From positions 124,001 to 188,000 of the forward strand of contig NZ_WELI01000002.1 in assembly GCF_009184635.1 (NCBI RefSeq): 64,000 nucleotides of DNA, given 5' to 3'. A program made the position numbers and the translations under genes. The notes beneath the pieces are model-generated. The model did no database searches. It was given only the letters and a program-made list of their open reading frames with translations, and was not told the DNA's origin. Positions 2,843 through 61,475 of the stretch are shown here, piece after piece (within the stretch, counting starts at the first letter, position 1; each line of letters starts with the position of its first letter). The DNA is from Rudanella paleaurantiibacter (GTDB lineage Bacteria; Bacteroidota; Bacteroidia; Cytophagales; Spirosomataceae).

Positions 2843-2927
2843 GTTTACTGTTTTCAGTCTACAGTTTTCAGTTGGCTGACACAGTTACAAGTTTGTGTCA
2901 ACCAACTGAAAACCGAGAACAGTAAAC
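2843..2927. repeat. Long imperfect hairpin between rpoB and rpoC, word CAGTTTTCAGT
   Basis: Arm 2843-2882 pairs with arm 2895-2927 around a loop of about 12 nt. The outer ends (GTTTACTGTT) and the inner ends (TTTCAGTTGG-TGACAC) match almost perfectly. Arm one carries an extra 7 nt, one more copy of the CAGT-like word. The structure starts 8 nt after the rpoB stop codon (2936-2938) and ends about 25 nt before the rpoC ATG. No long T run follows, so it is not a textbook terminator. It may act as an RNA processing or stability element. Function is not known. Confidence 0.75.
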
Positions 2928-2935
2928 TGAAAACT

Positions 2936-5900
2936 TTACTCAAGTGTAATTTCAAGTGCCAGACCACGTAACTCGTGTACAAGTACGTTGAACGACTCAG
3001 GGATATTTGGCTTCGGCAGGTTTTCACCCTTCACAATAGCTTCGTACGCCTTTGCACGGCCAACCACGTCGTCCGACTTCACCGTCAGGATTTCCTGTAG
3101 GATGTTCGATGCCCCGAAGGCCTCCAACGCCCACACTTCCATCTCCCCGAAACGCTGACCACCAAACTGTGCCTTACCACCCAGCGGTTGCTGCGTAATG
3201 AGCGAGTAGGGTCCAATCGAGCGGGCGTGCATCTTATCATCGACCAAGTGACCGAGCTTAAGCATGTAGATGATCCCTACCGTTACTTTCTGGTCAAAGC
3301 GATCGCCGGTCAAACCATTGTACAGATAGGTACGGCCAAATGATGGCAAACCTGCAGCATCAAGCTCGTCAACAACCTGCTGCTCGGTAGCACCGTCGAA
3401 AATCGGCGTTGCATACTTGCGGCCCAGTTTCTGACCCGCCCAGCCTAATACGGTTTCGTAAATCTGACCGAGGTTCATCCGGGAAGGTACACCCAATGGG
3501 TTCAGTACGATATCCACGGGGGTTCCGTCTTCGAGGAACGGCATATCTTCGTCACGAACGATCCGGGCAACAACCCCTTTGTTACCGTGACGACCGGCCA
3601 TCTTATCCCCTACTTTCAGCTTACGCTTCTTGGCAATGTACACCTTCGCCAGTTTCACGATACCAGCCGGCAGTTCGTCACCTACTTCGAGGGTAAACCG
3701 CTCGCGCTTGAAGCGACCCGTTACCTCGTTTCGGCGCGTGTTGTAGTTTTTCACTACCTGCACTGCCAATTGGTTCGTGTGGTGATCGTCTGTCCAGCCT
3801 TCAAGCACCAGATCGCTCAAGAGGTTAACTTCCTCGGGAACCGAGTAGCCACTCTCATCACGATACGGGTTCTTATCAGGGAACAGGTTATCGGTGATAT
3901 TCTTCCGATTGAACTTAACCCCTTTGCTGACGATTTCGTCGCCAAACTTATGCTTCACACCCGCACTAGTTTTGCCATCAAGCAGATCAACCAGTTTGTC
4001 AATCATCCGACTACGCAGCACAGTCAGGTCACGACTAAACTTCTTCATCAGAACCTTAATCTCTTCCTTATGCTTACCGCGGTCTTCCTTCGACGGACGC
4101 GAGAATAGTTTTGTATCAATTACAACCCCTTTCAACGACGGTGGTGCTTTCTTCGAGGCATCTTTTACGTCGCCCGCTTTATCACCAAAGATCGCACGGA
4201 GCAGTTTTTCTTCCGGTGTCGGATCGCTTTCTCCTTTTGGTGTAATCTTACCAATCAGGATATCGCCTTCTTTTACCTCAGTACCTACCCGCACAATACC
4301 GTTCTCATCAAGGTTACGAACGGTTTCTTCGCTCACGTTTGGAATTTCAGAAGTCAGTTCTTCTTCACCCCGCTTCGTATCGCGAACTTCCAGTTCAAAC
4401 TCTTCGATGTGGATAGACGTGAAGATATCTTCGCGTACTACACGCTCCGAAATCACGATAGCATCCTCAAAGTTGTATCCCTGCCAAGGCATGAACGCAA
4501 CTTTCATGTTCCGGCCAAGCGCCAGTTCACCTTGTTGGGTTGCATACCCTTCGCAAAGCACATCACCCTTTGTTACTTTCTGTCCTTTCAGTACAGTCGG
4601 CTTCAGGTTGATGCAGGTATCCTGGTTCGTCCGGCGGAACTTAATCAGGCTGTAAGTTTTCACCTCATCTTCGAACGTCACCAGACGCGAATCGGCATCC
4701 AGTTCGTAACGAACCATGATCTTGGTCGAATCCACAAACTCAACTACACCGTTAGCTTCCGCAATGTAAAGAGCCCGCGAGTCGACAGCGACACGCCCTT
4801 CAAGACCAGTACCCACGATTGGGGCCTCGGGCCGGAGCAGCGGAACCGCCTGACGTTGCATGTTAGAGCCCATCAAGGCCCGGTTAGCATCGTCGTGCTC
4901 CAAGAACGGAATCATCGACGCAGCCACCGATACAATCTGGTTGGGCGCAATATCCATGAAGGTTACGCTCGTTGGCTCGGCCATTGGGAAGTCACCTTCA
5001 AAACGAGCCTTCAACCGATCAACCTGGAAGTTGCCACTGTTGTCGATACCCGCGTTTGCCTGAGCAATGTAGTGCGTATCTTCTTCTTCAGCCGTCAGGT
5101 ACATTACTGGTTTCTCCATCGACACCTTACCGTTTTCAATAACCCGGTATGGAGTTTCGATAAAGCCCATGCTGTTAATCTTCGCGTATACACACAAAGA
5201 CGAAATCAGACCAATGTTTGGACCTTCTGGTGTTTCAATCGTACACAAACGACCATAGTGCGTGTAGTGAACGTCACGCACTTCGAAGCCAGCTCGCTCA
5301 CGCGACAGACCACCAGGCCCCAATGCCGACATACGACGCTTGTGCGTCACCTCGGCCAATGGGTTGGTTTGGTCCATAAACTGCGATAGCTGGTTGGTAC
5401 CGAAGAATGAGTTGATAACCGACGATAAGGTCCGGGCGTTGATCAGATCAACCGGCTTAAAGTCTTCGTTATCCCGTACGTTCATCCGCTCCTTAATAGT
5501 CCGGGCCATACGGGCCAGACCAACACCAAACTGAGCGTACAGCTGCTCCCCAACGGTCCGCACCCGGCGGTTGCTGAGGTGGTCAATATCATCGACTACA
5601 GCTTTCGAGTTGATAAGCCCGATGAGGTACTTCACAATAGATACGATGTCTTCCGTAGTCAACACCTTTGTATCAGAAGCTACCTCAAGACCCAGCTTCT
5701 TGTTGATCCGGTACCGGCCAACATCACCAAGGTCATACCGCTTATCCGAGAAGAACAGGCTCTGGATAATTTCCCGAGCTGTTTGCTCATCCGGAGCATC
5801 GGCATTACGCAACTGCCGGTAGATTTGCTCAACGGCTTCTTTCTCCGAGTTTGAGCTATCCTTCTGCAGTGTGTTGTAAATAATATTGTAGTCAGCCACG

Positions 5901-6820
5901 TTCATGTCTTCCTTGTGCAGGATGACCGATTTCTGGCCTGAGTCCGTAATCACGTCAATGTCATCAACCGAGATAACCGAGTCACGCTCCAGAAGCACCT
6001 CATTCCGGCTGATTGAAACTACTTCACCTGTATCTTCATCAACAAAGTCTTCCGTCCAGGTACGCAGTACCCGAGCAGCCAAACGACGCCCGATCGCCTT
6101 CTTCAGGTTGGCAGGAGTAGCCGGGATTTCTTCAGACAAGCCAAAGAGATCAAGAATGTCTTTATCAGATCCAAAACCAATTGCACGCAACAGCGTTGTT
6201 ACCGGAAATTTCTTCTTCCGGTCGATGTACGCGTACATTACGTTATTCACGTCCGTTGAGAACTCAATCCATGATCCTTTGAACGGGATGATCCGGGCCG
6301 AGTACAGCTTAGTCCCGTTCGTGTGCTTGCTCATTGAGAAGAACACACCAGGCGAACGATGGAGTTGTGAAACAATAACTCGTTCCGCTCCGTTAATGAC
6401 GAACGAGCCCTTTTCGGTCATGTACGGGATATTCCCAAGGAATACCTCCTGCTCGATTGTCTCGAAATCTTCGTTGTCTGGATCGTTATTCGACAACCGC
6501 AACTTTGCTTTCAGCGGTACTGAGTACGTCAGACCCCGATCGATACACTCATCAACGGAATACTTCGGAGGATCAACCGAATAGTCGATAAAGTCCAGCA
6601 CGAAGTTTTCGCGTGAATCCGAAATCGGGAAATTTTCCTGAAACACCTTAAACAGACCTTCCTGCGACCGGTGGTCTGACGGTGTATCAAGTTGGAAAAA
6701 ATCTTTGAATGATTTAATTTGGATATCGAGGAAGTCAGGATATCCGATTACTGGCTGAATCGTCGCAAAGTTTTTGCGCATGCTGGTGTTGTTTGCGTTT
6801 GTAGCCAATGTTAGAGCCAT
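2936..6820 (-). CDS. rpoB: DNA-directed RNA polymerase subunit beta
   Basis: This is the beta subunit of RNA polymerase, 1294 aa, a normal length for Bacteroidota. The rifampicin-pocket region (residues about 480-540) reads [13 protein letters not shown], then [13 protein letters not shown] and [12 protein letters not shown], with the residues expected of an unmutated pocket. The universally conserved [12 protein letters not shown] lies near residue 1075. The C-terminus retains the [19 protein letters not shown] block. The start chosen ([11 protein letters not shown]) is the first ATG after stop codons, and the conserved [14 protein letters not shown] block follows within 40 residues. It lies downstream of rplL across a 228-bp gap with an attenuator-like hairpin and upstream of rpoC. 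Confidence 0.98.
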
Positions 6821-6988
6821 TACATTTGTGTGGCCGATTGCGCTCTGCCCCTGTTTTAAGAAGGAAAAAAAACGGCCCTAAATGCCCTAAGCGTCACCCG
6901 CTCGAGGGGGCAATAGTGAGGTAACGTTTAGACCAAAAAATTAGTTTAAACAATATCCTCTATATATAGACAAAAGTCTCCAAACAGG
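6821..6988 (-). promoter_or_regulatory. rpoB leader region
   Basis: This non-coding stretch lies between the rplL/rpoB hairpin and the rpoB start. On the minus strand TGCCC at 6908-6912 can pair with GGGCA at 6883-6887 around a GC-rich interior, followed about 10 nt later by a run of eight T (6867-6873 region). That could be a weak transcriptional pause or just a structured leader. A GACTTTTG box at about 6970-6977 resembles the -7 element TAnnTTTG in seven of eight positions but has no matching -33 TTG. No confident promoter is visible. Confidence 0.35.
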
Positions 6989-7011
6989 AAAAGACCTGAC
7001 GGATAGTCAGG
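6989..7011 (-). terminator. Attenuator-like hairpin between rplL and rpoB
   Basis: On the minus strand a 6-bp stem CCTGAC/GTCAGG (7006-7011 with 6995-7000, extendable by GC at the base) has a 5-nt loop and is followed by TCTTTTCC. This is a weak intrinsic terminator about 37 nt after the rplL stop. Genes on both sides belong to the same conserved operon, so partial readthrough is the natural reading. A partial attenuator at this position is known in Escherichia coli, where it lowers rpoBC output relative to ribosomal proteins. That it works this way here is inference. Confidence 0.6.
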
Positions 7012-7048
7012 CCTCCCCTATTTGGAGTTGTATTGAAAAAGCAGTTGC

Positions 7049-7432
7049 TTACTTTACTTCTACTTCAGCACCAGCTTCTTCCAATTGCTTCCGGAGAGCC
7101 TCAGCTTCATCCTTTGCTACACCTTCTTTAACTGGTTTCGGAGCACCGTCAACGAGTTCTTTCGCTTCTTTCAGGCCCAGACCGGTCAAGTCTTTAACCA
7201 GCTTCACAACAGCCAGTTTACCAGCACCTGGGCTCTTCAGGATTACGTCGAAAGACGTTTTCTCGGGCGCAGCCGCAGCAGCTTCGCCACCACCTGCACC
7301 GCCAGCTACCATTACGGGAGCAGCAGCTGCTGGTTCGATACCATACTCGTCCTTCAGGATAGCAGCGAGTTCGTTAACTTCTTTTACCGTCAGGTTTACG
7401 AGCTGCTCAGCGAACGCTTTCAAATCTGCCAT
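7049..7432 (-). CDS. rplL: 50S ribosomal protein L7/L12
   Basis: This is the stalk protein of the large ribosomal subunit, which recruits translational GTPases. It has 127 aa from the chosen start [14 protein letters not shown]. An upstream ATG at 7483 would add 17 residues not found in the family, so I reject it. The order is an N-terminal dimerisation helix, an Ala/Gly-rich hinge (around residues 36-53) and a C-terminal globular domain with KTSFDVIL and [12 protein letters not shown]. It follows rplJ by 69 nt and precedes rpoB. Confidence 0.97.
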
Positions 7433-7501
7433 TTCAGTATTGTAATTTGATTGTGATACGATTGTTTGGGAAATTACAGGCACCCGCCCGTAATAGATAA
7501 A

Positions 7502-8032
7502 TTAAGCCTCTTCGCGCTCTGACAGCGTTTTGAGGATGCCGGCCAGTTTGCCACCACCGCTTTGAAGGGCAGATACCACATTCTTCGCAGGTGATTGCAA
7601 GAGACCAATAATATCGCCGACCAGCTCTTCTTTGCTCTTCAGCGAAATCAACGTATCCAGCTGATCTGCACCGATGAATAAGCTATAGTCGATCGAAGCG
7701 CCTTTCAACTTCAGCTTGTCGTTCGTTTTACGGAACTCCTTAATGAGTTGTGCCGGTGCCTTCTGGTTTTGGGCGTGAAACATCACACCTGACTGACCAG
7801 CTAATACCGTATCGTTAAACGGCGTATAATCCGTTTCAAGCGTTTCGAGTGCTTTTTTGATAAAAGTGTTTTTTACCACTTTGTACTCGATACCCCGCTC
7901 GAAGCATTTCCGACGAAGATCATTGACTTCAGCAACGCTCATGCCACTGGCCTCCGTGATGTAGAAGAAAGGAATGCTCTGAAACTTCTGAGCTAACTCT
8001 TCTATAATCGCTCCTTTTTCTTCCCGTGTCAT
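7502..8032 (-). CDS. rplJ: 50S ribosomal protein L10
   Basis: This is the base of the ribosomal stalk, which anchors L7/L12 dimers to 23S rRNA. It has 176 aa, the usual length. It begins MTREEKGAIIEELAQKF and contains the conserved YKVVKNTFIKKAL block near residues 50-62 that contacts rRNA. The C-terminal helix (residues about 140-176) is the L12-binding segment. It starts 2 nt after the rplA stop, so translation is likely coupled. L10 commonly autoregulates rplJL by binding its own leader. The space here is too short for a separate leader, so any such site would have to lie within rplA. Confidence 0.97.
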   Translation of the reverse strand: MTREEKGAIIEELAQKFQSIPFFYITEASGMSVAEVNDLRRKCFERGIEYKVVKNTFIKKALETLETDYTPFNDTVLAGQSGVMFHAQNQKAPAQLIKEFRKTNDKLKLKGASIDYSLFIGADQLDTLISLKSKEELVGDIIGLLQSPAKNVVSALQSGGGKLAGILKTLSEREEA

Positions 8033-8034
8033 GA

Positions 8035-8733
8035 TTAGATTCCTGCTACAGTGCCTTTGTCAATGGTTACGCCTGGGCTCATCGTGCTCGATATATTGAT
8101 CGACTTCACGTATGTACCTTTCGCTGATGACGGCTTCAGACGCAACAGCGTAGAGATAATCTCCTGTGCGTTTTCGGCCAACTTCTCGGGGGCAAACGAT
8201 ACCTTACCGATGCTCGTGTGAATAGCACCCTGCTTATCAACTTTGAAGTCGATTTTACCAGCTTTCACCTCCTGAACGGCTTTCCCTACTTCCAGCGTTA
8301 CGGTACCTGACTTTGGGTTCGGCATGAGACCACGAGGACCTAATACCCGGCCCAAACGGCCCACCTTTGCCATGACGTTCGGCATTGTGATAATCACATC
8401 TACGTCCGTCCAGCCTTGCTCAATCTTCTGAATGTAGTCGTCGAGGCCAACATAGTCAGCTCCGGCATCTTTTGCTTCCTGTTCTTTGTCGGGGGTGCAA
8501 AGCACCAGCACACGAACCGTTTTGCCCGTACCATGTGGGAGCGTAGCAACGCCACGAACCATCTGGTCGGCTTTACGCGGATCAACGCCCAACCGAACGT
8601 CAATATCCACAGAAGCGTCGAACTTCGTGTACGAAATCTCCTTCAGAATACTCGCTGCCTGTTCGAGCGAGTATGCCTTAGAAGCATCGTACTTCGACAT
8701 CGCTTCCTTTTGTTTCTTGGTTAACTTTGCCAT
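8035..8733 (-). CDS. rplA: 50S ribosomal protein L1
   Basis: L1 is the mobile L1-stalk protein that helps E-site tRNA release and often represses its own operon. It has 232 aa, typical of the family. The signature block [21 protein letters not shown] is present near residues 120-140. The C-terminal part, with [17 protein letters not shown], completes the two-domain fold. It lies between rplK (30 nt upstream) and rplJ (2 nt downstream). See the rplK leader entry for a possible L1-binding site. Confidence 0.97.
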
Positions 8734-8763
8734 GTCTCGTAAATTGCTTTTGGCAATGATTGC

Positions 8764-9210
8764 TTACTGGTCCTCCCAGGGTGCTTTACCCTGCACCGTA
8801 ATTCCCATGCTGCGTGCAGTACCGGCAATCATCTTCATCGCCGACTCAATTTTGAATGCGTTCAGATCGGGCATCTTCGTTTCCGCGATAGTCCGTACCT
8901 GATCCCATGTTACTGAGCCAACTTTGTTACGATTCGGTTGTGCCGAGCCACCTTTCAGCTTGGCAGCCTCCATCAACATGATCGGTGCAGGTGGGGTTTT
9001 GATTACAAAGTCAAATGACTTGTCTTTGTAATAGGTAATCACCACCGGCAATACCATCCCCATCTTATCCTGCGTCCGGCCGTTAAACTGCTTGCAGAAT
9101 TCCATGATGTTCAAACCCTTGGAACCCAGCGCCGGACCGATCGGTGGAGAAGGGTTAGCCTGGCCGCCCTTAACCTGCAACTTTACGTAGCCACCTACTT
9201 CTTTTGCCAT
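8764..9210 (-). CDS. rplK: 50S ribosomal protein L11
   Basis: L11 forms the GTPase-associated centre with 23S rRNA and is needed for the stringent response. It has 148 aa including the N-terminal [20 protein letters not shown], the proline-rich [16 protein letters not shown] segment and the C-terminal rRNA-binding domain ending GKAPWEDQ. It follows nusG after a 160-nt structured gap and precedes rplA by 30 nt. Confidence 0.97.
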
Positions 9211-9370
9211 TGTCTTGGTGAATTTATGGCCGCAGTGCAGCCCATCGTGATTGCAAACAACTCAGCCGTACGTCACATTACATTTGAGCAATCTGTCAAT
9301 CGGTACTCTAAGTTTGGCAACGGACTCCGAGTGGGAAGCACGAGTCCTGAATGCCGAGACTTAACCTTAG
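9211..9370 (-). promoter_or_regulatory. Structured nusG-rplK leader, possible L1 autoregulatory site
   Basis: The 160 nt between the nusG stop and the rplK start contain no gene. On the minus strand GGACTC and GAGTCC (around 9321-9346) form a hairpin with an inner GTG/CAC pair. Nearer rplK, TGCA...TGCA (about 9236-9256) encloses a CACGATGGGC loop. In other bacteria L1 binds a leader upstream of rplK that mimics the rRNA L1 stalk. That this leader does so is inference from position and structure only. No TAnnTTTG promoter was seen. Confidence 0.4.
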
Positions 9371-9931
9371 TTAAGCCTCTTTATCAACTTGCGCGTAACT
9401 CAATTCAACAGGTGTGTTCCGACCGAAGATCTTAACGACTACGTTTAGCTTCTTCCGATCATCAAACACCTCTTCTACGGTACCAATAAAGCCGCTAAAT
9501 GGTCCGTCGATTACCTTAACCGACTCCCCTTTCAGGTACCCTACCGTAGGTGCGGCTGCTTCCTGTGTTTCTTCCTCAACCCGTCCTAAGATCCGGTTTA
9601 CCTCTGCCTGACGCAGGGGTACAGGTATCTTTGAGTTTGTACCGGTTTGTGAATTACCCAAAAAGCCTAAAACGCCGGGCATGTTCAGGATCATGTCGAG
9701 AGCCCGGTTGTTAGTCAGATCAGCCGAGATCAGGATGTAGCCAGGAAAAAAAGATTTTTCCCGAACACGCTTCTTACCGTTGCGCATTTCATACACCTTT
9801 TCCGACGGAATCAGCACCTGAGGAATAACCTCGTCTAACTTTTGCCGGATGATCTCATTGTCCAGATAAGACTTAATTTTCTTTTCCTGTCCAGACACTG
9901 CCCGAATAACATACCACTGAATCTCAGCCAT
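9371..9931 (-). CDS. nusG: Transcription termination/antitermination protein NusG
   Basis: NusG is the processivity factor that bridges RNA polymerase to Rho or to the ribosome. The N-terminal NGN domain starts MAEIQWYVIRAVSGQEKK and includes FFPGYILI and NMPGVLGFLG. The C-terminal KOW domain reads GESVKVIDGPFSGFIGTVEEV (residues about 130-150). The start at 9931 gives 186 aa. An in-frame ATG at 9943 would add MTTI and cannot be excluded. It sits between secE and rplK, its conserved place. The gap to secE contains a hairpin of the same odd class as the one after rpoB. Confidence 0.96.
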   Translation of the reverse strand: MAEIQWYVIRAVSGQEKKIKSYLDNEIIRQKLDEVIPQVLIPSEKVYEMRNGKKRVREKSFFPGYILISADLTNNRALDMILNMPGVLGFLGNSQTGTNSKIPVPLRQAEVNRILGRVEEETQEAAAPTVGYLKGESVKVIDGPFSGFIGTVEEVFDDRKKLNVVVKIFGRNTPVELSYAQVDKEA

Positions 9932-9959
9932 GATCGTTGTCATTTATTGCCACCATACA

Positions 9960-10013
9960 GTCATTAGCGTACCGCTTAAGCCTACACTTGAAGCGGAGGT
10001 AACGACTAATGAC
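9960..10013. repeat. Imperfect hairpin between secE and nusG
   Basis: Arm 9960-9977 (GTCATTAGCG-ACCGCTT) pairs with 9991-10013 (AAGCGG...CTAATGAC) with small bulges and a 13-nt loop. It begins 16 nt after the secE stop codon. The second arm contains a repeated CGACTAATGACGAATAACGAC stutter. There is no terminator-like T run, and the flanking genes are an ancient operon, so transcription should pass through. Confidence 0.55.
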
Positions 10014-10029
10014 GAATAACGACGTTCTG

Positions 10030-10221
10030 TTAGAATGATTGATAGAAGGCGTTAAGGCCGTTCTCAAAGATGAAATCAATCAGACCAACCAATAGCGCAA
10101 AAATCAGCGACGCAACAAGTACCAGCGTTGAGCTGGCTTGTAGGTCGCTGAACTTTGGCCAAGTGACGTTGTGCTGAACCTCCTCCCAGGAAGCTTTCAG
10201 AAACGATATAAACTTGTCCAT
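10030..10221 (-). CDS. secE: Protein translocase subunit SecE
   Basis: SecE is the small essential clamp of the SecYEG channel in the inner membrane. It has 63 aa, the short single-span form. It begins MDKFISFLKASWEEVQHNVTWPKFSDL, whose NVTWPKFSDLQASS block is the amphipathic helix typical of SecE. A single transmembrane helix (TLVLVASLIFALLVGLIDFIF) follows. It starts 13 nt downstream of tRNA-Trp, so the tRNA must be processed from the secE mRNA. Confidence 0.95.
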   Translation of the reverse strand: MDKFISFLKASWEEVQHNVTWPKFSDLQASSTLVLVASLIFALLVGLIDFIFENGLNAFYQSF

Positions 10222-10234
10222 CTATGTAGAAGAT

Positions 10235-10308
10235 TGGCACGGGTGGAGAGATTCGAACTCCCATCAACGGTTTTGGAGACCGCTATTCTACCCTTGAACT
10301 ACACCCGT
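10235..10308 (-). tRNA. tRNA-Trp (CCA anticodon)
   Basis: The minus strand folds as a cloverleaf. The acceptor ACGGGTG pairs with CACCCGT, the anticodon stem-loop GCGGT-CTCCAAA-ACCGT has anticodon CCA, and the T-arm is GGGAGTTCGAATCTCTC. The discriminator is G and a 3' CCA is encoded. It sits between tuf and secE, which is conserved in Bacteroidota. Confidence 0.97.
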
Positions 10309-11820: not shown

Positions 11821-11881
11821 GTATAATGATTAATGAATGAAGGCAGTCGAAACATTATTCATTTGGCATTATTCATTATAC
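11821..11881. repeat. Imperfect hairpin of AATGAAT stutter between tRNA-Gly and tRNA-Thr
   Basis: GTATAATGATTAATGAATG (11821-11839) can pair with the reverse complement at 11853-11881, which reads as TAATGAATAATG units. Both arms are built from the same AT-rich word, so several registers are possible. It separates two tRNAs of one transcript. It belongs to the same architectural class as the other word-stutter hairpins in this window but uses a different word. Confidence 0.5.
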
Positions 11882-24684: not shown

Positions 24685-24770
24685 GTTTCAGGTTTCAGGT
24701 TTCAATCGTAGTGATAGAACATTCAGATTATCAAGACTCCGAAACCTGAAACACTATTGAAACTTGAAAC
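24685..24770. repeat. Hairpin of GTTTCAG stutter between actE and actF
   Basis: Three GTTTCAG-like units at 24685-24705 face inverted GTTTCA units at 24741-24770 (read as CTGAAAC and TTGAAAC). Several pairing registers are possible around a 35-nt centre. On the minus strand it starts 7 nt after the actE stop codon. It is the only long gap in the ActA-to-DUF983 run, so it may tune the step from ACIII periplasmic subunits to actF and the oxidase. No T run follows. Confidence 0.6.
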
Positions 24771-32282: not shown

Positions 32283-32315
32283 AAAAAAGGCCAACAAGAA
32301 TATCTTGTTGGCCTT
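32283..32315 (-). terminator. Intrinsic terminator of rpsA
   Basis: A perfect 13-bp stem AAGGCCAACAAGA/TCTTGTTGGCCTT (32303-32315 with 32287-32299) with a 3-nt loop is followed by a T run on the minus strand (32283-32288). It lies about 20 nt after the rpsA stop. Confidence 0.92.
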
Positions 32316-45033: not shown

Positions 45034-45041
45034 AGGGAGAG

Positions 45042-45114
45042 AAAGGATAGTGGAGGTTTGCGACCTACAACCCCAAAACCTCCTTTATATTACCTGCATA
45101 ACTGTCTATCCTTT
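45042..45114. repeat. Two-step hairpin after the M20 peptidase gene
   Basis: Outer arms AAAGGATAG/CTATCCTTT (45042-45050 with 45106-45114) enclose inner arms GGAGGTTT/AAACCTCC (45052-45059 with 45076-45083). A 22-nt one-sided bulge separates them. It starts 8 nt after the stop codon. The second arm ends in CCTTTTATC, so it may terminate the peptidase transcript. Confidence 0.55.
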
Positions 45115-45132
45115 TATCAAAGATACAAAAAA

Positions 45133-45210
45133 GGAGTGAGGAGATAAGAGTGAGAATGCTTGCGCCAGCCTACACTTGTGGAGCGTTCTCACTCCAATCT
45201 CCTCACTCCT
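45133..45210. repeat. 27-bp hairpin of GGAGTGAG stutter next to the S9 peptidase stop
   Basis: Arm 45133-45159 pairs with 45184-45210 with 24 of 27 positions matching. Each arm contains GGAGTGAGGAGAT followed by another GAGTGAGAA unit. It ends 4 nt from the S9 peptidase stop codon (45215-45217). A5-6 on the left side gives a T run for the minus strand, so it probably terminates that gene. Confidence 0.75.
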
Positions 45211-45214
45211 CCCT

Positions 45215-53742: not shown

Positions 53743-54372
53743 ATGCTTTTTGACGACACTTTTTTAACGCTTTCCGAACACGCCGAGGGGCAGTTTCGTG
53801 ACCGGGGTAGCCGCTTTCTGGCCTACGCCTACCCGATCCGGTCGGAAACCGACGCCAAACAACGGCTCGAAGCCCTCCGCCAGCAACACCCCAAGGCGGC
53901 TCACCATTGCTATGCCTACCGGCTGGGGTTGGGTAAAGACCACTACCGGGTCAACGACGATGGCGAACCGAGCGGTACCGCCGGACGGCCTATTCTGAAC
54001 ACGATTTACAGCCACGACAAACCGGGCCAACCGTTCACCAATATACTGGTGGTGGTGGTGCGCTATTTTGGCGGCACGCTGCTGGGCGTACCGGGGCTCA
54101 TCAACGCCTACAAAAGCGCCACAGTCGAGGCCCTCGCCAACGCCCGATTCGAAACCCGGACGGTGGATGAGCAATACCGTATCCGGTTTAGCTTTGAGCA
54201 GATGAACAACGTAATGCGGCTCGTGAAAGAGCAACAACTGACGGTGCTGAGCCAGGCCTTCGATACCGAACCCACGCTGGAAGTGTCTATGCGCAAAACG
54301 CAGGTCAACAGCGTGCTCGACCGGCTGAGTCAGCTACCCGGCGTGCAGACCGAGTGGGTGCCGAATGGGTAA
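53743..54372 (+). CDS. YigZ/IMPACT family protein
   Basis: The 209-aa product has an N-terminal UPF0029/Impact domain with SRFLAYAYPIRSETDAKQRL and HHCYAYRLG, then NDDGEPSGTAGRPIL and VVVVRYFGGTLLGVPGLINAY (residues about 75-125). A C-terminal ferredoxin-like DUF1949 domain follows. Homologues bind nucleic acid and are linked to translation, but the role is unsettled. ATG 53743 is preferred over an in-frame TTG at 53731. Downstream genes run in the same direction. Confidence 0.92.
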   Translation: MLFDDTFLTLSEHAEGQFRDRGSRFLAYAYPIRSETDAKQRLEALRQQHPKAAHHCYAYRLGLGKDHYRVNDDGEPSGTAGRPILNTIYSHDKPGQPFTNILVVVVRYFGGTLLGVPGLINAYKSATVEALANARFETRTVDEQYRIRFSFEQMNNVMRLVKEQQLTVLSQAFDTEPTLEVSMRKTQVNSVLDRLSQLPGVQTEWVPNG

Positions 54373-54453
54373 TCGGCTCCGTGCTCGACAAACCATTCCC
54401 CCGGCCACGGTGTTGGGCGAGTACCATCTGGTTTTGGATTTGATGAACGCTGT

Positions 54454-55542
54454 ATGCCGCTACAACTGCAACTAAACACCCCCGTTACCGACGACCGGCC
54501 GGTTTTTGTATCGGGCAATTTTTGCGGCTGGCACCCCGATCTCGACGTGTTTCGACTGCAACAGTCGGCCCCCGGAACTTACACCCTGACGTTCCCGACT
54601 GATCTGCGCCTGCCCGATGTTGTCGAGTACAAGTACACGCGGGGCGGCTGGGATAGCGTGGAACTAACGGGTGCGGGCGAAAGCCGCCCCAATCGGGTTC
54701 TGAGTCCAGGCACCGAGTTTCAGCAGGATTTTGCGCCCCACTGGCGCTTGTCGGGGCAAGCGTTCAACCCGGCGCTGGTGCCACATCTGAAGGTGTTGAG
54801 TTCCGATTTTTACGCCCCTCAGCTGGGGGCTTCGCGCCGGGTGCGGGTGCTCCTCCCCCACGACTATCATCAGAATCCCAACAAACGATACCCGGTTTTG
54901 TACCTCCACGATGGCCAGAACCTGATTGGCGAGGGAGAAGGGTACGGCTCGTGGGGCGTAGAGCAAAAAATGGCGATTCTGGCCGCACGGCGACACCATG
55001 AAGTCATTCTGGTGACCATCGACCACGGCTACCAACAGCGCATCGAAGAGTTTACGGTTCACAAAAGCCGGATGGCACAAGGGCGCGGGCGGGCATACCT
55101 GGCCTTTATTGCCCAAACGCTTAAACCCGCCATCGACGCCCAATACCGAACCCTCCCCGATGCCCCGAACACCGGCCTCGGCGGCAGCTCGTTGGGTGGG
55201 CTCATCAGCATTTACGGGGGGCTACTGCACCCCCATGTGTTTGGCCGGCTCATGGTGTTCTCACCTTCGCTCTGGATCTCGCCCAAAATCTACTTCGACG
55301 CCATTCGGTTCCAGACACCCTCGCCCATGCGCATTTACGTGTACGGGGGCGAAACCGAGTCGAAATACATGGTTCCCAACCTGCAACGGTTTCAGGATTC
55401 CCTGCTGAAACAGTGCTACAACGGGCAACCCATCGACATTTACCTCTCCGTCGACCCCGACGGGACCCATCAGGAAGTACACTGGGGTCGCGAATTTCCG
55501 GCGGCTCTGGAGTGGTTATTTTATGCGCAACCGGCTGTCTGA
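54454..55542 (+). CDS. Alpha/beta-hydrolase-fold esterase with N-terminal starch-binding-like domain
   Basis: The 362-aa product has an N-terminal beta domain (residues 1-90: VFVSGNFCGWHPDLDVFRL, FPTDLRLPDVVEYKYTRGGW) resembling CBM20/CBM48 modules. It is followed by an esterase D/enterochelin-esterase-like hydrolase. The nucleophile is in GLGGSSLGGLISIYGG near residue 245, a catalytic acid is likely in YVYGGETES, and His is in GTHQEVHWGREF near 345. There is no signal peptide, so it is cytoplasmic. It starts 81 nt after yigZ and ends 26 nt before the M17 aminopeptidase. The substrate is unknown. Confidence 0.82.
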   Translation: MPLQLQLNTPVTDDRPVFVSGNFCGWHPDLDVFRLQQSAPGTYTLTFPTDLRLPDVVEYKYTRGGWDSVELTGAGESRPNRVLSPGTEFQQDFAPHWRLSGQAFNPALVPHLKVLSSDFYAPQLGASRRVRVLLPHDYHQNPNKRYPVLYLHDGQNLIGEGEGYGSWGVEQKMAILAARRHHEVILVTIDHGYQQRIEEFTVHKSRMAQGRGRAYLAFIAQTLKPAIDAQYRTLPDAPNTGLGGSSLGGLISIYGGLLHPHVFGRLMVFSPSLWISPKIYFDAIRFQTPSPMRIYVYGGETESKYMVPNLQRFQDSLLKQCYNGQPIDIYLSVDPDGTHQEVHWGREFPAALEWLFYAQPAV

Positions 55543-55568
55543 AGCCCCCGTTTTATCCATCTGTTCTC

Positions 55569-57020
55569 ATGCACCTATCACTTTCGCAGTCGGCCACGTC
55601 CGACACCCTTCTTATCCCAGTTATCCAGAACGACCACCTCGTCAATACCTTGTCCAACCTGGCCCCAACCGTAGGTTTACCGGCATCAACCCTCGAAGCC
55701 GATTTCAAGGCCGACGCCAAAGAAGTTTTGCCTATTTACCAACCCAACGGCCGCAAAACATACCTGATTGGGTTGGGCAAGACACCGGGCATTAATGAGT
55801 GGTTTCGCACCTTCCGCAAGTTTTTTTACGATCAGAAAAACCGTCTCCCGCAGCACGTAGGCGTTGATTTGCGCCTTCATGGGCCCGATGCAATTGAAGG
55901 GGTCGTATTGGGGGCGTACGGGGGCGGGTACGACCTCAAACTGTACCAGACCGATAAACCGGAAAGCCCTATTTTTTACAGCGAAAACGGCCAGTTGAGC
56001 CTGCTCGTCGACGATCCGACCACCCAGGCCGACGCCCTTCGTCGGGCCGAAGCCATTGCTCTCACCCAGCGGCAAATCATGGACCTGATGAACGCGCCTT
56101 CTAACTACAAAACACCCCAAACCCTCGCCGATTGGGCCGTGGCATCGGGCCGGCAGCATGGGTATTCGGTGCGGGTACTGAACAAGGCTCAGATCGAACA
56201 GGAGGGGCTACAGGCGCTGTTGGCTGTAAATCGGGGTAGTGATCACGAGCCGGTGTTTATCATTGCCGAATACAAGCCTGAGCACGCGCCAAACGCCAAA
56301 AAAGTAGGTCTGGTGGGCAAAGGCATCACGTTCGATACGGGCGGTATCTCAATCAAGCCATCGGCCAACATGCATATGATGAAATCGGACATGGGCGGGG
56401 CTGCGGCCGTGTTGGGCACGCTCGAAGTAGCTGCTAAACTCAAACTGCCGGTGCACCTGATCGGGATTGTGCCCTCAACCGAAAACATGGTCGATGGCAG
56501 CGCAACCAAGCCGGGCGATGTGATTGGCTCATACCTGGGCAAAACCATTGAGGTGATCGATACCGACGCCGAAGGCCGCATTATTCTGGCCGATGGCCTG
56601 GGCTACATGGTACGCAATTACGGCCCCGATGTGCTCATTGACCTGGCCACGCTCACTGGCAGCGTGATTGCTACGCTGGGGTACCATGCCGCCGGGCTGT
56701 TTACCAACAACGACGAACTGGCCGAGGCCCTGAGCCGGGCCGCCACCCAAACCGGCGAACGAGTCTGGCGACTGCCGCTCTGGGACGTGTACGCCGAAGA
56801 CATCCGCTCCGACGTGGCCGACCTCAAAAATTTCAGTGGCAAACCCATGGCCGGGGCCATATCGGCGGGTAAGTTTCTGGAAGTATTCACCGAAAATCAC
56901 CCCGCCTGGGTCCACCTCGACATTGCCGGCACCGCCTTTGGCGATACCGAGTTTGGCAGTCAGAAAAACGGCACGGGCTTCGGAATTCGGTTGTTGATCG
57001 ACTGGTTACGAACGCTCTAA
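55569..57020 (+). CDS. Leucyl aminopeptidase family (M17)
   Basis: This cytoplasmic di-zinc aminopeptidase has 483 aa from MHLSLSQSATSDTLLIPV. The catalytic domain starts after about residue 180. GKGITFDTGGISIKPSANM has a metal Lys/Asp pair, MKSDMGGAAAVLG follows, and the family signature NTDAEGRL appears as IDTDAEGRIILADGL near residue 336. The C-terminal end GTGFGIRLLIDWL is typical. Codons upstream of 55569 overlap the esterase gene and are not conserved. It sits between an esterase and an ATP-grasp ligase. Confidence 0.93.
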   Translation: MHLSLSQSATSDTLLIPVIQNDHLVNTLSNLAPTVGLPASTLEADFKADAKEVLPIYQPNGRKTYLIGLGKTPGINEWFRTFRKFFYDQKNRLPQHVGVDLRLHGPDAIEGVVLGAYGGGYDLKLYQTDKPESPIFYSENGQLSLLVDDPTTQADALRRAEAIALTQRQIMDLMNAPSNYKTPQTLADWAVASGRQHGYSVRVLNKAQIEQEGLQALLAVNRGSDHEPVFIIAEYKPEHAPNAKKVGLVGKGITFDTGGISIKPSANMHMMKSDMGGAAAVLGTLEVAAKLKLPVHLIGIVPSTENMVDGSATKPGDVIGSYLGKTIEVIDTDAEGRIILADGLGYMVRNYGPDVLIDLATLTGSVIATLGYHAAGLFTNNDELAEALSRAATQTGERVWRLPLWDVYAEDIRSDVADLKNFSGKPMAGAISAGKFLEVFTENHPAWVHLDIAGTAFGDTEFGSQKNGTGFGIRLLIDWLRTL

Positions 57021-57098
57021 AATAAACCTCCGTGTAAGGCCCATTGGCAAATTCAACCGGCATGTTGTAGTTTAGGGTGAACATCGACCTTACATCCT

Positions 57099-58310
57099 AT
57101 GCGTCCACTCTCGTTTCTCTGTATTGCTACGTTTTTCAAAGGTGAGGCTTTCATGCGGGCTTGCAAAGAGCTTGGCCACACGGTGTACCTGCTCACGGTT
57201 GAAAAGCTGGCCGATAAACCCTGGCCGTTCGAGGCCATCGACGAGGTGTTTTATCTGCCTACCGAAAGCAATGACAGCGAGAATCTGGACCGGATGATCC
57301 TGGGCCTATCGCATACGATGCGCTCCCGCCGAATCGACCGGGTGGTAGCGCTGGACGATTTCGATGTGGAAAAAGGGGCGCTTATCCGCGAAACGTTCCG
57401 GATCGACGGCATGGGCCAAACCACCGCCCGCTACTTCCGCGACAAACTCGCCATGCGAATGCGGGCGCAGGCAGCGGGTATTCGGGTGCCGGGGTTCAGT
57501 CCGCTTTTCCACGACGAAACCATTACGCAGTTTCTGCAAACCACCGAGGGGCCGTGGCTCATCAAACCCCGCGCCGAAGCCTCCACAACCGGCATTCGGC
57601 GGGTCGACTCGCTCGATGAAGCCTGGGAGGTTATTCACGGCCTGGGCGATAACCGCCATAACTACCTGATTGAGCAGTTCAAGCCGGGCAAGGTGTTCCA
57701 CGTTGACTCGTTATCGGTGGATAGCCACCCGGTGTTTACGCGGGCGAGTGGCTACCTTGCTACCCCGATGGAGGTAGCGCACGGGGGTGGGGTGTTTCGC
57801 ACGGGGATTTTGCCGTTCGACTCACCCGATACGGCCGCTCTGCACAACCTCAACAGTCTGGTGTTGCAGGCTTTCGGGATGCGGTACAGTGCCTCGCATT
57901 CGGAATTTATCAAAGGCGATCACGACGGTGAGTTTTACTTTCTCGAAACAGCCTCGCGGGTGGGAGGTGCCCACATTGCCGAACTGGTCGAGGCTTCATC
58001 GGGCATTAACCTCTGGGCAGAGTGGGCCCGGCTCGAAACCGCCGTGGCTTTGGGGCAACCATACACGGTTCCGGCCGAGCAACAAAACTACGCGGGTCTG
58101 ATTGTGTCGCTCGCCCGGCAACAATGGCCCGACCTAGGCATTTTTACGGAACCCGAAATCTGGTGGCGTCTCGACAAGGAGTACCACGTGGGGCTCATTG
58201 TTCAGTCCGAAAGCCGGGAGCGGATTCTGGCCCTGCTCGATACGTACATGGCGCGCATCTACGCCGAGTTTCACGCGTCGGCCCCGGTACCCGATAAGCC
58301 TACGAGTTAA
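57099..58310 (+). CDS. ATP-grasp domain ligase, substrate unknown
   Basis: The 403-aa product has an N-terminal pre-ATP-grasp domain (SFLCIATFFKGEAFMRACKE), a GMGQTTARYFRDKLAMR lid region, the nucleotide-binding block PWLIKPRAEASTTGIRRVDS near residue 155-175 and HNYLIEQFKPGKVFHVDSLS. The metal-binding strand is HDGEFYFLETASRVGGAHIAELVE near 275-300 with Glu and Arg/Gly-Gly in place. The fold joins a carboxylate to an amine or thiol using ATP, as in amino-acid ligases. A weak promoter-like TAGTTTAG lies 23 nt upstream. No partner amidoligase is nearby. It sits 78 nt after the M17 peptidase. Confidence 0.85.
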   Translation: MRPLSFLCIATFFKGEAFMRACKELGHTVYLLTVEKLADKPWPFEAIDEVFYLPTESNDSENLDRMILGLSHTMRSRRIDRVVALDDFDVEKGALIRETFRIDGMGQTTARYFRDKLAMRMRAQAAGIRVPGFSPLFHDETITQFLQTTEGPWLIKPRAEASTTGIRRVDSLDEAWEVIHGLGDNRHNYLIEQFKPGKVFHVDSLSVDSHPVFTRASGYLATPMEVAHGGGVFRTGILPFDSPDTAALHNLNSLVLQAFGMRYSASHSEFIKGDHDGEFYFLETASRVGGAHIAELVEASSGINLWAEWARLETAVALGQPYTVPAEQQNYAGLIVSLARQQWPDLGIFTEPEIWWRLDKEYHVGLIVQSESRERILALLDTYMARIYAEFHASAPVPDKPTS

Positions 58311-58460
58311 TCGCCAATAAATCGAAGAAGCCAAATCTTACGGGGCCTTATCCTACGTCACAAGCACCCGCTTATTTGCTTGTACACTTCGGAAACCAAC
58401 CCCCGCCTGTTTTGCGTTGTTGTTTAGAATAAGCCTACCGCTCCGGGGGCATAACACAAC

Positions 58461-61394
58461 GTGACAGACAACAACGTACTAACGGCGCAAACAAGTCCGG
58501 TTTCCGGGCCTTCTGGCGCCCTCAACGACATTGCCCTCACGGGGTATGAGCAAATTGAAGTGCTCGGAGCCCGCGAACATAACCTCAAAAATATCGACGT
58601 GACCATTCCGCGCAACAAGCTGGTGGTGGTCACGGGGATTAGCGGCAGCGGCAAATCGTCGCTTGCGTTCGATACGATTTATGCCGAGGGGCAGCGCCGG
58701 TATATGGAGAGCTTTTCGGCATACGCCCGCTCGTTTATCGGGGATATGGAACGCCCCGATGTCGACAAGATTGATGGGCTGAGTCCGGTTATCTCCATTG
58801 AGCAGAAAACCACCTCCAAAAACCCCCGCTCAACCGTAGGCACCACGACCGAGATTTACGACTTCCTGCGGCTCCTGTACGCCCGCGCTGGTGATGCGTA
58901 CTCGTACGTGACGGGCCGCAAAATGGAGCGACAATCGCAGGATCAGATCATCGACACCATCATTGAGCAGTACGAAGGGCAGAAACTCACCCTCCTGGCA
59001 CCGGTGGTGCGCGGCCGCAAAGGCCACTACCGCGAGCTGTTTGTGCAGATTGCCAAACTCGGCTACACCAAAGTGCGGGTCGATGGGGTGGTGCAGGAAA
59101 TTGTGCCGAAAATGCAGCTCGACCGGTACAAAATCCACGATATTGAGATCGTGATTGACCGGCTGGTGCCCAAACGCGACACAGCCGATGAATCGAATAC
59201 GCGGTTTCGGCTGAGCCAATCGGTTCAAACGGCGCTCAAGCAAGGCAAAGGAGCCATGCAGGTGCTGGTAGGTACCGGCGACGACCGCACCGGCGGACCG
59301 ACCCAACTGGTGTATTTCTCGCAGAACCTGATGGACCCGGAATCGGGCATCAGCTACGACGAACCTTCGCCCAACTCGTTTTCGTTCAACTCGCCTTATG
59401 GCTGGTGCCCTACCTGTCAGGGTATTGGCAATGTGGAAGAAATCACCGAGGAATCAATTATTCCCGATAAAAAGCTGAGCGTGAGCCGTGGGGCTATTGC
59501 CCCGCTTGGGGAGTACCGGGAACTCTGGTTTTTCAAAGAGATTGAGGTCATCCTGAAAAAATACAAACTCAGCCTGACCACGCCCCTTGAAAAATACCCC
59601 GACGATCTGCTACAGGCATTGCTCTACGGTACGGAGGAGGAGGCAACCATGCCTTCGAAAAAGCTGCCCGGCACCGACTATTATCAGTTTAAGTTTGAGG
59701 GCATTATTAAATTCCTGAAACGGCAGCAGGAGAACGGCTCCGAAAAAATTCAGGAGTGGCTTAAAGACTTCATGGTCATTAAGCCTTGCCCCGACTGCAA
59801 CGGTGCCCGGCTGAAGAAAGAGTCGCTGTATTTCAAGATTGCCGACAAGAATATCTCAGAGCTGGCGCAGATGGACATTTCGGAGCTGTCGGTCTGGATC
59901 ACCGACCTCGAAAGCCGCCTGAGCGACCGGCAGAACGTAATTGGTAAAGAAGTGCTGAAAGAAATTCGGAAACGGATCGGCTTTCTGCTCGATATTGGCC
60001 TTGACTACCTCACCCTCGACCGCCCACTCCGAACCCTGTCGGGGGGCGAAGCCCAACGTATCAGACTGGCCACCCAAATCGGGACACAGCTCGTAGGTGT
60101 GTTGTACATCATGGACGAGCCAAGTATCGGCTTGCATCAGCGTGACAACGTCAAGCTCATCGACTCGCTTAAGAACCTGCGCGACCTGGGCAACACGGTG
60201 CTCGTTGTTGAACACGACAAAGACATGATGCTCGAGTCGGACTATATTCTCGACATTGGGCCGGGGGCTGGTCGGCACGGAGGGCAGGTGGTAGGCCGGG
60301 GTACACCCGATGAGTTTATCCGCAACGGCAGTACCACCGCCGATTACCTGAGTGGCCGACGCGCCATTGAAGTTCCCAAAGAACGACGTAAAGGCAACGG
60401 TAAGTTTCTGGTCATCAAGGGCGCTACGGGCCATAATCTCAAAAACGTAACGCTTAAACTGCCGCTGGGCCGAATGATCTCGATCACGGGCGTGTCGGGG
60501 TCGGGCAAGTCATCGCTTATTCACGAGACGCTGTTTCCGGTGCTCAACAAGCACTTTTACAAGTCGAAACGGGAGGCTCTGCCGCACAAGTCAGTAGAGG
60601 GGCTTGAGCATCTGGACAAGGTTATCGAGGTCGATCAATCGCCCATTGGGCGTACTCCGCGTTCTAACCCGGCTACGTACACCGGTATGTTCTCGGAGAT
60701 TCGGGCGCTCTTTGCCGAGTTGCCCGAAGCTAAAATACGCGGTTACAAACCGGGTCGTTTCTCGTTCAACGTGAAAGGTGGTCGCTGCGAAGACTGCGAA
60801 GGCGCGGGTATGAAGAAAATCGAAATGGAGTTTCTGCCCGACGTGCACGTGATGTGCGAAACCTGCAAGGGCAAGCGCTTCAACCGCGAAACCCTGGAAG
60901 TGCGTTTCAAGGGTAAGTCTATTGCCGATGTACTCGACATGACTGTAGAGCAGGCGCTTGAGTTTTTCGAGGCTCAACCCAAAATTCTGCGAAAGGTACA
61001 AACCCTCAACGACGTGGGCCTGGGGTACATCACCCTGGGGCAACACGCCACTACCCTCTCAGGGGGCGAAGCACAACGGGTAAAACTGGCCGAGGAGCTT
61101 TCCAAAAAAGATACCGGCCAGACCATGTACATCCTTGACGAACCGACCACGGGCCTGCATTTTCAGGACATTGCGCACCTGCTCGATGTGCTGAACAAAC
61201 TGGCCGATAAAGGCAATACGGTTCTAATTATTGAGCATAATCTGGACGTGATCAAAGTGTCGGATCACATCATCGACCTGGGGCCGGAAGGCGGCAACAA
61301 AGGCGGTCAGATCATTGCCGAGGGAGTGCCCGAAAAAGTAGCCAAAGTGCAAGGCAGCTACACCGGTAAGTTTCTGGCGATGGAGTTGAAATAA
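58461..61394 (+). CDS. uvrA: Excinuclease ABC subunit A
   Basis: This is the damage-recognition ATPase of nucleotide excision repair, 977 aa from a GTG start at 58461. Two ABC modules are visible: Walker [10 protein letters not shown] near residue 60 and GVSGSGKSS near 678, and signatures [12 protein letters not shown] near 528 and [12 protein letters not shown] near 866. The third zinc module is intact (CEDC...CETC, near 775-801). In the first module only the second pair, CPTC in [11 protein letters not shown], remains. The usual first CPxCG pair is replaced by [14 protein letters not shown]. The first 30 residues are an extension not seen in the E. coli protein. Confidence 0.95.
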
Positions 61395-61475
61395 AGTAGG
61401 CAGTGACAGTAAGCAGTGGGCAGTGGCAGTAAGCAGTACTCTTGAGTCAGCTACTGCCTACTGCACACTGCTACT
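61395..61475. repeat. Hairpin of GCAGT stutter between uvrA and smpB stop codons
   Basis: The left side, 61395-61437, is a run of AGTAGGCAGTGACAGTAAGCAGT-like units. The right side, 61453-61475, is their inverted copy (ACTGCCTACTGCACACTGCTACT). About 20 of 23 positions pair in the best register, and the left side contains a second copy of the word. It fills the whole 80 bp between the uvrA stop (61392-61394) and the smpB stop (61475-61477). Confidence 0.7.

What the first reader, a model, noticed from the sequence alone, without database searches (positions are those of the whole stretch)
2843..61475. A class of stop-codon-adjacent hairpins, each built by stuttering its own short word
At least six gaps hold the same architecture with different sequence: 2843-2927 (CAGTTTTCAGT), 9960-10013 (CTAATGAC), 11821-11881 (AATGAAT), 24685-24770 (GTTTCAG), 45133-45210 (GGAGTGAG) and 61395-61475 (GGCAGTRRCAGT). 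Arms are imperfect inverted copies in which a 6-10 nt word is repeated two or more times, so pairing can slip between registers. Most begin 4-16 nt from a stop codon or fill the space between two stops. Ordinary terminators in the same window (for example 32283-32315, 62427-62464) look quite different: short perfect stems with U runs. Conserved form with non-conserved words suggests a generating process (slippage or template switching during replication) or a structure-based RNA function rather than a mobile repeat family.
Basis: partly seen in the sequence, partly recalled or inferred. Interest (0 to 1): 0.75.

Follow-up and report, generated by a model that had tools for sequence, protein, structure and literature searches.

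The report
Hairpins written in repeating seven-letter words
In the quarter of its genome examined, this bacterium carries about a hundred DNA hairpins, mostly next to gene ends, whose arms repeat one of about ten partly free seven- or eight-letter words; related species can hold a different word at the same place, so an unknown process may be writing and rewriting them.

Summary
Five of the six gaps belong to a genome-wide class; 9960-10013 is an ordinary short hairpin. In 1.66 Mb of this genome I counted 105 strict cases. Shuffled gaps gave none. The words are not private to each gap: about ten shared words recur, mostly with period 7, some 8. Common rules: (1) four kept positions, one free, one semi-fixed, one free; (2) the G-richer strand reads toward the loop (98 versus 5); (3) in four genera, exact copies of an inner core GGCTGACGC/GCGTCAGCC around a short, ever-different loop. 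Close relatives hold empty sites, or a hairpin with a wholly different word in the same gap. At 61395 the sister species has the loop inverted and the arms rewritten, the footprint of template switching. Stem substitutions between sisters mostly break pairs (10 sites), against a conserved RNA function. Y1 (RAYT-type) transposases do not track the elements. Closest known kind: the intergenic heptamer repeats of Xanthomonas and Nostoc (GGGANTN), with similar word grammar, orientation and gene-end placement. I file this as a new variant: multi-word, core-bearing, word-changing hairpins, probably dispersed and rewritten by fold-back DNA synthesis; enzyme unknown.

The parts
2843..2927 (.). Word hairpin of the GTTTNNN class in the rpoB-rpoC gap (rpoB 2936-6820 minus; rpoC-side ORF 2-2818 minus)
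   Evidence: Fold -41.7. Present in sister G001; gap only 20 nt in G002 and 19 nt in G003; same-theme hairpin in G006; different words in G010 and G020. RpoB named by Pfam; rpoC by position (inference).
9960..10013 (.). Ordinary imperfect hairpin beside nusG; not a member (no iterated word)
   Evidence: NusG by Pfam.
11821..11881 (.). Word hairpin of the AATGNNN class between tRNA-Thr and tRNA-Gly genes
   Evidence: Same site in congener G002 holds an AACAGTG-word hairpin.
24685..24770 (.). Word hairpin GTTTCAG between a cytochrome-c-domain gene and a gene without a Pfam match
   Evidence: Gap is 11 nt in congener G002. Pfam.
45133..45210 (.). Word hairpin of the GGAGNNA class, convergent gap between M20 peptidase and DPP-IV-like peptidase genes
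   Evidence: Fold -51.6; Pfam. In G001 the gap is 738 nt and was not examined further.
61395..61475 (.). Word hairpin GCAGTNN in the convergent uvrA-smpB gap
   Evidence: UvrA and SmpB by Pfam.
61425..61457 (+). 33-nt block, including the loop, found reverse-complemented in sister species G001 (template-switch footprint)
   Evidence: Longest exact match to the G001 gap: 33 nt reversed, 14 nt forward; loop part 23 nt reversed, 6 nt forward.

Best explanation
These are members of a dispersed class of intergenic hairpin elements. Each consists of two arms made of an iterated, degenerate 7- or 8-nt word, in some genera an inner constant core (GGCTGACGC...GCGTCAGCC), and a short loop that differs between copies. 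Shown here: the class, its shared vocabulary, the word grammar (positions 1-4 and, more weakly, 6 kept; 5 and 7 free), fixed polarity, gene-end placement, empty sites, and different words in the same gap of close relatives. Inferred: new elements are laid down at gene ends by a DNA-copying process, and their second arm is made by fold-back synthesis (template switching) on the first. That would explain why free word positions differ between elements yet agree between the two arms. The constant anchors of each word would be the pairing sites that let the copy slip or restart every 7 nt. After birth the hairpins mostly decay by point mutation, and now and then are rewritten in place. I think they are tolerated rather than needed by the host. 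The enzyme is not identified.
For: Abundance far above shuffles, repeated on held-out sequence. Shared words. One exact core with four different words in G093 and three in G113 among 15 loci each. In 20 G093 elements of the AATG class, position 5 is T30 A21 C14 G10 while position 6 is A in 74 of 75 units, and arms mismatch at 7 of 850 pairs; 19 of 20 inner-unit triples are distinct. All 47 parsed loops next to an intact core are distinct. Polarity 98 versus 5. Empty sites: 20, 19 and 11 nt, 12 nt, 16 nt. Four congeners with four different words at the end of one gene. Loop inversion with rewritten arms at 61395. Arms of the G093/G113 set mismatch at 117 of 2642 pairs, own-genome arms at 287 of 2684.
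Against: No target-site duplication or enzyme was found for the word hairpins (sites looked at by eye only). Y1 transposases do not correlate. Only one clear loop inversion was seen among the G000/G001 sites. The loops, though all distinct, resemble each other somewhat more than shuffled loops do (mean best identity 0.63 against 0.55), so some copying of whole elements is likely; in G113 identical inner triples are also commoner than independent assortment predicts (3 against 0.83, p 0.046). The G093/G113 sets were chosen by exact core or by similarity to one element, and one search kept only arms with at most one mismatch. The rotation that defines word positions 1-4 picks the best four by construction, and in G000 the position-6 effect is weaker (36 versus 19). 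Different words in one gap could be independent insertions into small ancestral gaps.
Confidence: 0.52

Rival explanations
1. Conventional non-autonomous mobile elements (MITE- or REP-like): whole hairpins copied by a transposase in trans, each word class being a subfamily that then decays.
For: Dispersed, repeated, intergenic, with empty sites; AATG elements of G093 align over their whole length to one query at about 70-92% identity; loops resemble each other more than shuffled ones; another repeat family in the same genus shows an apparent 8-nt flanking duplication.
Against: Free word positions are near saturation while anchors are fixed and both arms agree, not what copy-then-mutate gives; loops all differ; no correlation with Y1 transposases; no flanking duplication seen by eye at the empty sites.
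Confidence: 0.24
2. Purely local origin: each gap grows its own hairpin by slippage and template switching from local sequence.
For: Loop inversion at 61395; period-7 stutter; the empty gap in G104 already carries one copy of the word CCGTAAAC that G113 iterates there.
Against: The same words and core recur at many sites and across genera; core and polarity are shared between words.
Confidence: 0.1
3. Selected RNA function: hairpins at gene ends stabilise or process mRNA, so form is kept and sequence is free.
For: Placement next to stop codons, depletion between divergent genes (7 of 176 gaps versus 93 of 706), strong folding, a hairpin at some gaps in several genera despite word change.
Against: Stem changes between sisters break 28 of 38 changed pairs at 10 sites; empty gaps in congeners inside the rpoB-rpoC operon; placement is also what tolerance alone predicts.
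Confidence: 0.15
4. Different words in one gap reflect import of whole intergenic regions from other strains by homologous recombination.
For: Whole gap contents differ between sisters while flanking genes are 93-96% identical at three sites.
Against: Gap lengths stay nearly equal and the other sequence is again a word hairpin; recombination breakpoints in the flanks were not tested.
Confidence: 0.12

Closest known systems
Heptameric G-rich repeats of Xanthomonas and Nostoc, GGGAATC / GGGANTN (Rehm et al. 2015, PMC4692102; passages and one section read)
   Same: Period 7; positions 1-4 and 6 conserved, 5 and 7 free; intergenic; 70 and 75 cases of convergent inverted pairs able to form stem-loops; near stop codons; rare between divergent genes; extensive length and sequence variation between sister species.
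   Different: One word type per genome studied there, against about ten here; no constant core or loop rule in the parts read; described as quadruplex-forming tandem repeats, not as hairpin units; [quoted passage not shown] Gammaproteobacteria and cyanobacteria.
TAACTGA intergenic heptamers of Beggiatoaceae, some cyanobacteria and five Bacteroidetes (PMC4679880; passages read)
   Same: Intergenic heptamer repeats; related 7-mers split some sets.
   Different: Mostly direct repeats just upstream of start codons; one inverted repeat reported in the main genome studied.
STRR heptanucleotide repeats of Calothrix and other cyanobacteria (name recalled; three repeated heptanucleotides of Calothrix are mentioned in a passage)
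   Same: Several different heptamer words in one genome.
   Different: Known to me as tandem arrays; hairpin core and word change not known to me.
REP / REPIN elements with RAYT transposases (PMC3116915, PMC3733652; passages read)
   Same: Short, intergenic, inverted-repeat elements in high copy with variable central sequence.
   Different: REPs have a short palindrome with a GTAG or CGTC tag; here such a tag is near the arms in 4 of 69 elements, arms are long and worded, and Y1 transposases do not track them.
Template-switch hairpins (Monttinen and Loytynoja 2022, PMC8794818; passages read)
   Same: Loop inversion and instantly matched arms are its stated footprints, as at 61395.
   Different: That mechanism explains arm matching, not the shared vocabulary or dispersal.

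Membership tests
Intergenic heptameric repeats (Xanthomonas/Nostoc type) | Unit of 7 nt | tested here: met
   Lag 7 in 48 of 64 and 32 of 47 held-out elements; lag 8 in 13 of each set.
Intergenic heptameric repeats (Xanthomonas/Nostoc type) | Positions 1-4 and 6 conserved, 5 and 7 free | tested here: met
   Unit-to-unit match by position, G113.95 .81 .90 .95 .25 .85 .32; G093.66 .74 .81 .88 .24 .64 .40; G000 weaker at 6.92 .85 .86 .93 .31 .59 .36 (positions 1-4 are the best run by construction).
Intergenic heptameric repeats (Xanthomonas/Nostoc type) | G-rich word able to form quadruplexes | tested here: not met
   The commonest words (AATG, GTTT, GAGYGANT types) have no runs of three G (by reading the words, no quadruplex scan run). 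So not filed as a member of the quadruplex class.
REP/REPIN with RAYT | Genome encodes a Y1 (RAYT) transposase tracking the repeats | tested here: not met
   G093 (35 cores), G201, G022 and G074 bear hairpins but no PF01797 match; most of the genomes without the hairpins have one or more (49 of 56 genomes have a match).
REP/REPIN with RAYT | Terminal GTAG or CGTC tag | tested here: not met
   GTAG or CGTC within 6 nt outside either arm in 4 of 69 parsed elements of G093 and G113; no outside 4-mer is common.
MITE | Target-site duplication and terminal inverted repeats of a known transposon | tested here: inconclusive
   Empty sites found, no clear duplication by eye; no parent transposon sought beyond Y1.
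Template-switch hairpin | Loop inversion with re-matched arms between relatives | tested here: met
   Met at 61395 only; at no other of the 32 G000/G001 sites did a reversed loop match of 10 nt or more exceed the forward match.
Intrinsic terminator | GC-rich stem followed by a T run | tested here: inconclusive
   T run of 4 within 10 nt outside an arm in 20 of 105 word hairpins and 49 of 235 other intergenic hairpins. Elements also sit inside rpoB-rpoC and between tRNA genes.
Curated RNA family | Match to an Rfam model | tested here: not met
   Only tRNAs in the window; none in the 20 of 30 core loci searched.

The most novel reading that the evidence does not exclude
Bacteria as far apart as Bacteroidota, Xanthomonas and cyanobacteria share an undescribed DNA-writing process that composes intergenic hairpins from a degenerate seven-letter word (four fixed letters, one free, one fixed, one free), with the G-rich strand toward the loop, copies one arm from the other, and can replace one word by another at the same gene end.
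Probability: 0.27. Interest if true: 0.9.

Novelty: new variant of a known kind. Interest (0 to 1): 0.72.

Why it matters
Why heptamer repeats are over-represented in bacteria is an open question; a polymerase-footprint slippage idea is quoted in PMC4692102 (passage). Here the question becomes testable: many words in one genome obey one grammar and polarity, some around one core, and differ between sister species, so strain series can show whether they are moved, copied or written. Hairpins between genes such as rpoB and rpoC could also change relative expression when they come and go (inference).

Tried and rejected
Shared loop of gaps 9960 and 45133: chance. Rfam: only tRNAs in the window, nothing in 20 core loci. 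Y1 transposase as mover: no correlation. Viral contigs as vehicle: 48 stretches with the exact core, but only 2 extend into arms or stutter, neither like the class. Spread of the AATG pattern beyond the family: 4 of 148 genomes drawn across the phylum, counting our own; the other three have one match each, and the reversed control hits 2 genomes, so this is background. Conserved RNA structure: pairs mostly broken. T runs: no difference from other hairpins. Literature searches for a description of word hairpins with a core gave only the papers cited; I saw listings for the rest, and the library is open-access only.

Dropped rows and choices: four strict hits judged ordinary terminators or palindromes by eye were removed before (64 to 60); with an added limit on arm length and span, 58 remained, plus 47 held-out elements not hand-filtered. 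Five of the 105 elements got no gap type. Ties (equal G and C) are left out of the 98 versus 5. L299 gave no hairpin. Mapping used 251 of 313 gaps, and the 32 strict sites include a few that do not look like the class. Of 35 and 41 core sites in G093 and G113 only 15 each were fetched as loci. The 57 genomes were chosen by me (31 with GTTT hairpins, 26 without). The 40 extra loci were picked from similarity lists. G070 could not be read at the L237 site because its locus stops there.

Changed on checking: the L237 comparison shares only one flanking gene with the four congeners, so I now call it the same gene end, not the same gap; loop resemblance and the G113 triple result are now told; odds of the best explanation lowered from 0.55 to 0.52 and of the novel case from 0.28 to 0.27 for that reason.
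Full report
What is there. The window lies in a 6.72-Mb genome. By its RpoB protein the nearest named records kept by the search are Bacteroidota of the Cytophagales type, at 81% identity (very near records may be left out, and the order is my inference). Five carry an iterated word; 9960-10013 does not. Its loop similarity to 45133 is chance.

More than chance. A strict detector (ungapped stem plus self-match at lag 6-9 in the arms) found 64 cases in intergenic DNA and 4 in coding DNA of 864 kb. The same approach gave 47 and 2 in 800 kb of the same genome not used to form the ideas. Run on the 898 gap sequences of all 1.66 Mb, it gave 94 cases, and 0 in each of five dinucleotide shuffles. After dropping four by hand and adding size limits, 105 remain; extrapolating gives roughly 420 per genome (inference). 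Looser criteria give 95 of 445 gaps against 2.0 in shuffles, but that list contains other repeat families too.

Shared vocabulary, not private words. Of 105 elements, 26 are AATG-type, 19 GTTT, 16 GAGYGANT (period 8), 14 GGAG, 7 GATG, 7 AAAGG, 4 AACA, 4 GTCTAA, 2 CAGGAT, 1 GCAGT, and 5 unassigned (classes are hand-written patterns). The rpoB-rpoC hairpin matches at least 11 other places in this genome over most of its length (12 of 57 candidates scored). A GTTTNNN hairpin pattern occurs in 55 of 200 genomes of the family, the reversed control in 4. An AATGNNN pattern occurs in 24 of 57 chosen genomes, up to 282 matches with overlapping registers counted, the control in 4 at up to 7, but in only 4 of 148 genomes drawn across the phylum, our own included, which is background (control in 2).

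Common rules. First, grammar: unit-to-unit matching by word position is .95 .81 .90 .95 .25 .85 .32 in G113 and .66 .74 .81 .88 .24 .64 .40 in G093; in our genome position 6 is only semi-fixed (.92 .85 .86 .93 .31 .59 .36). The first four positions are chosen as the best run, so only the contrast among positions 5, 6 and 7 is an independent result; position 6 exceeds the mean of 5 and 7 in 28 of 28, 26 of 30 and 36 of 55 untied arms. Second, polarity: the 5' arm has more G than C in 98 elements and fewer in 5 (54/3 of 60 and 44/2 of 47; p 2e-23), while other intergenic hairpins show 113 and 85. Elements of one word class are related, so this p-value overstates independence. Third, core: GGCTGRCGC with at most one mismatch is in 8 of 47 held-out loops, 0.9 expected. 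Exact cores GGCTGACGC...GCGTCAGCC occur in 21 of 57 genomes in 4 of 23 genera, control 0. Our own genome has only 3 exact cores, and G020, G022 and G061 have GTTT hairpins without any, so the core is common but not universal.

Young-looking elements show the build. In G093 and G113 the same exact core sits inside mostly well-matched arms of different words: AATGNAY, GAGYGANT, GTCCAAT and GTTTNNN in G093; GTTTACGG-type, GATGANT and AGAGTTAA in G113; one (L247) has arms without stutter (30 loci). Among 20 AATG-class elements of G093 with at most one arm mismatch, the free position 5 is T30 A21 C14 G10 while position 6 is A in 74 of 75 units, and the two arms disagree at only 7 of 850 pairs; 19 of 20 inner triples of units are distinct. 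The anchors T and G were partly imposed by my parser; positions 5, 6 and 7 were not. All 47 parsed loops beside an intact core differ, although they resemble each other somewhat more than shuffled loops (0.63 against 0.55); in G113, 3 pairs share three inner units where 0.83 are expected. Copying whole elements and then mutating them would hit anchors and free positions alike, and each arm separately. This is why I favour arm-to-arm copying, with some copying of whole elements besides.

Differences between species. rpoB-rpoC gap: same hairpin in G000 and G001, same theme in another genus (G006), GGAAAGGGAGG words in G020, GTCTAAAG-type in G010, 20 and 19 nt without hairpin in congeners G002 and G003; several other genera have ordinary, unworded hairpins there. 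tRNA gap at 11821: AATG words in G000 and G001, AACAGTG words in G002. Of 313 gaps, 251 map to sister G001; 32 sites hold a strict element in one or both, and 20 in both. At three sites both species hold a hairpin with wholly different words (shared 6-mers 0-2%, flanks 93-96% identical); in one of the three the G001 hairpin is seen by eye and by folding, not by the strict detector. One 127-nt gap is 12 nt in G001. In another genus, four species hold four different words at the end of the same gene: AATGTAT, GTCTAAA, GTTTGAC, GACTGGTT; only that one flanking gene is shared there, and the fifth, G070, could not be read. A G113 element is absent from G104 (both flanks 92% identical; gap 16 nt, which already holds the word CCGTAAAC).

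Template switching and decay. At 61395 the G001 gap contains a 33-nt block of our sequence reverse-complemented, against 14 nt forward, and its new arms pair almost perfectly. Loop inversion is a stated footprint of template switching (PMC8794818, passages read). Elsewhere the conserved elements behave as decaying sequence: at 10 equal-length conserved sites, 359 of 397 pairs were unchanged, 28 broken, 7 kept through one change and 3 through two; changes hit 42 of 794 paired and 32 of 404 unpaired positions. I see no sign of selection on pairing in this small sample.

Placement. Elements occur in 41 of 317 and 28 of 252 tandem gaps, 24 of 137 convergent and 7 of 176 divergent gaps (100 of 105 elements placed; divergent against the rest p 0.0003). 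Median distance is 5 nt to a stop and 17 nt to a start; in tandem gaps 52 lie closer to the stop and 17 closer to the start. The count within 20 nt of a stop (93 of 117) is only slightly above the 82 expected from random placement in the same, often filled, gaps, so much of the stop-codon effect is that the hairpin fills the gap. A T run beside the arms is no commoner or rarer than for other hairpins.

Known relatives. The closest kind I found is the GGGANTN heptamer of Xanthomonas and the GGGGAYT heptamer of Nostoc (PMC4692102, passages and section 10 read): positions 1-4 and 6 conserved, 70 and 75 cases of convergent inverted pairs in two genomes, near the upstream gene's end, rare between divergent genes. 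[quoted passage not shown] Membership fails on the G-run feature, so I call this a new variant, not a member. The agreement in grammar and orientation across such distant bacteria is the most interesting lead; for those bacteria it rests on the paper, not on a test of mine.

What remains open. The enzyme, the target choice, and whether different words in one gap mean rewriting, independent insertion into small gaps, or import of whole gaps. Y1 transposases are not the answer on present evidence.

Noticed in passing
L018 (G000:C23:308001-328000), L009:15896-16083, L031:19389-19605: Other dispersed inverted-repeat families: AGAGATGTCATCTCT blocks (241 vs 47 nt between sisters at L018:628) and elements with GCTGACGC at the outer ends around CTTCGACAGGCTCAGG-like sequence (188 vs 37 nt at L009:15896).
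   Followed up: partly
G000:C23 gap mapped as B97140, G001 side: A CAGTACTGGACATT... inverted-repeat element is present in G001 and absent in G000, flanked by an apparent 8-nt duplication (AACGCTAA, read by eye), as for a true transposable element; it sits beside a GTTT word hairpin.
   Followed up: partly
L257 site: G113 versus G104 and G084: The gaps without an element already contain one copy of CCGTAAAC, the word iterated in the inserted hairpin: target preference, seed, or remnant of an earlier element.
   Followed up: no
G010, G055: Alternative inner cores such as GTTGCTTCGC...GCGAAGCAAC or GTTGCGCTGC appear in place of GGCTGACGC: genome-specific dialects of word and core.
   Followed up: no
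window 45034-45214: In sister G001 this convergent gap is 738 nt long with unrelated sequence; a further gene may be present there.
   Followed up: no
G000:C12:298712-298787: Own-genome element with a mirrored core variant GGCTGGTGC...GCACCAGCC, changed alike in both arms.
   Followed up: no
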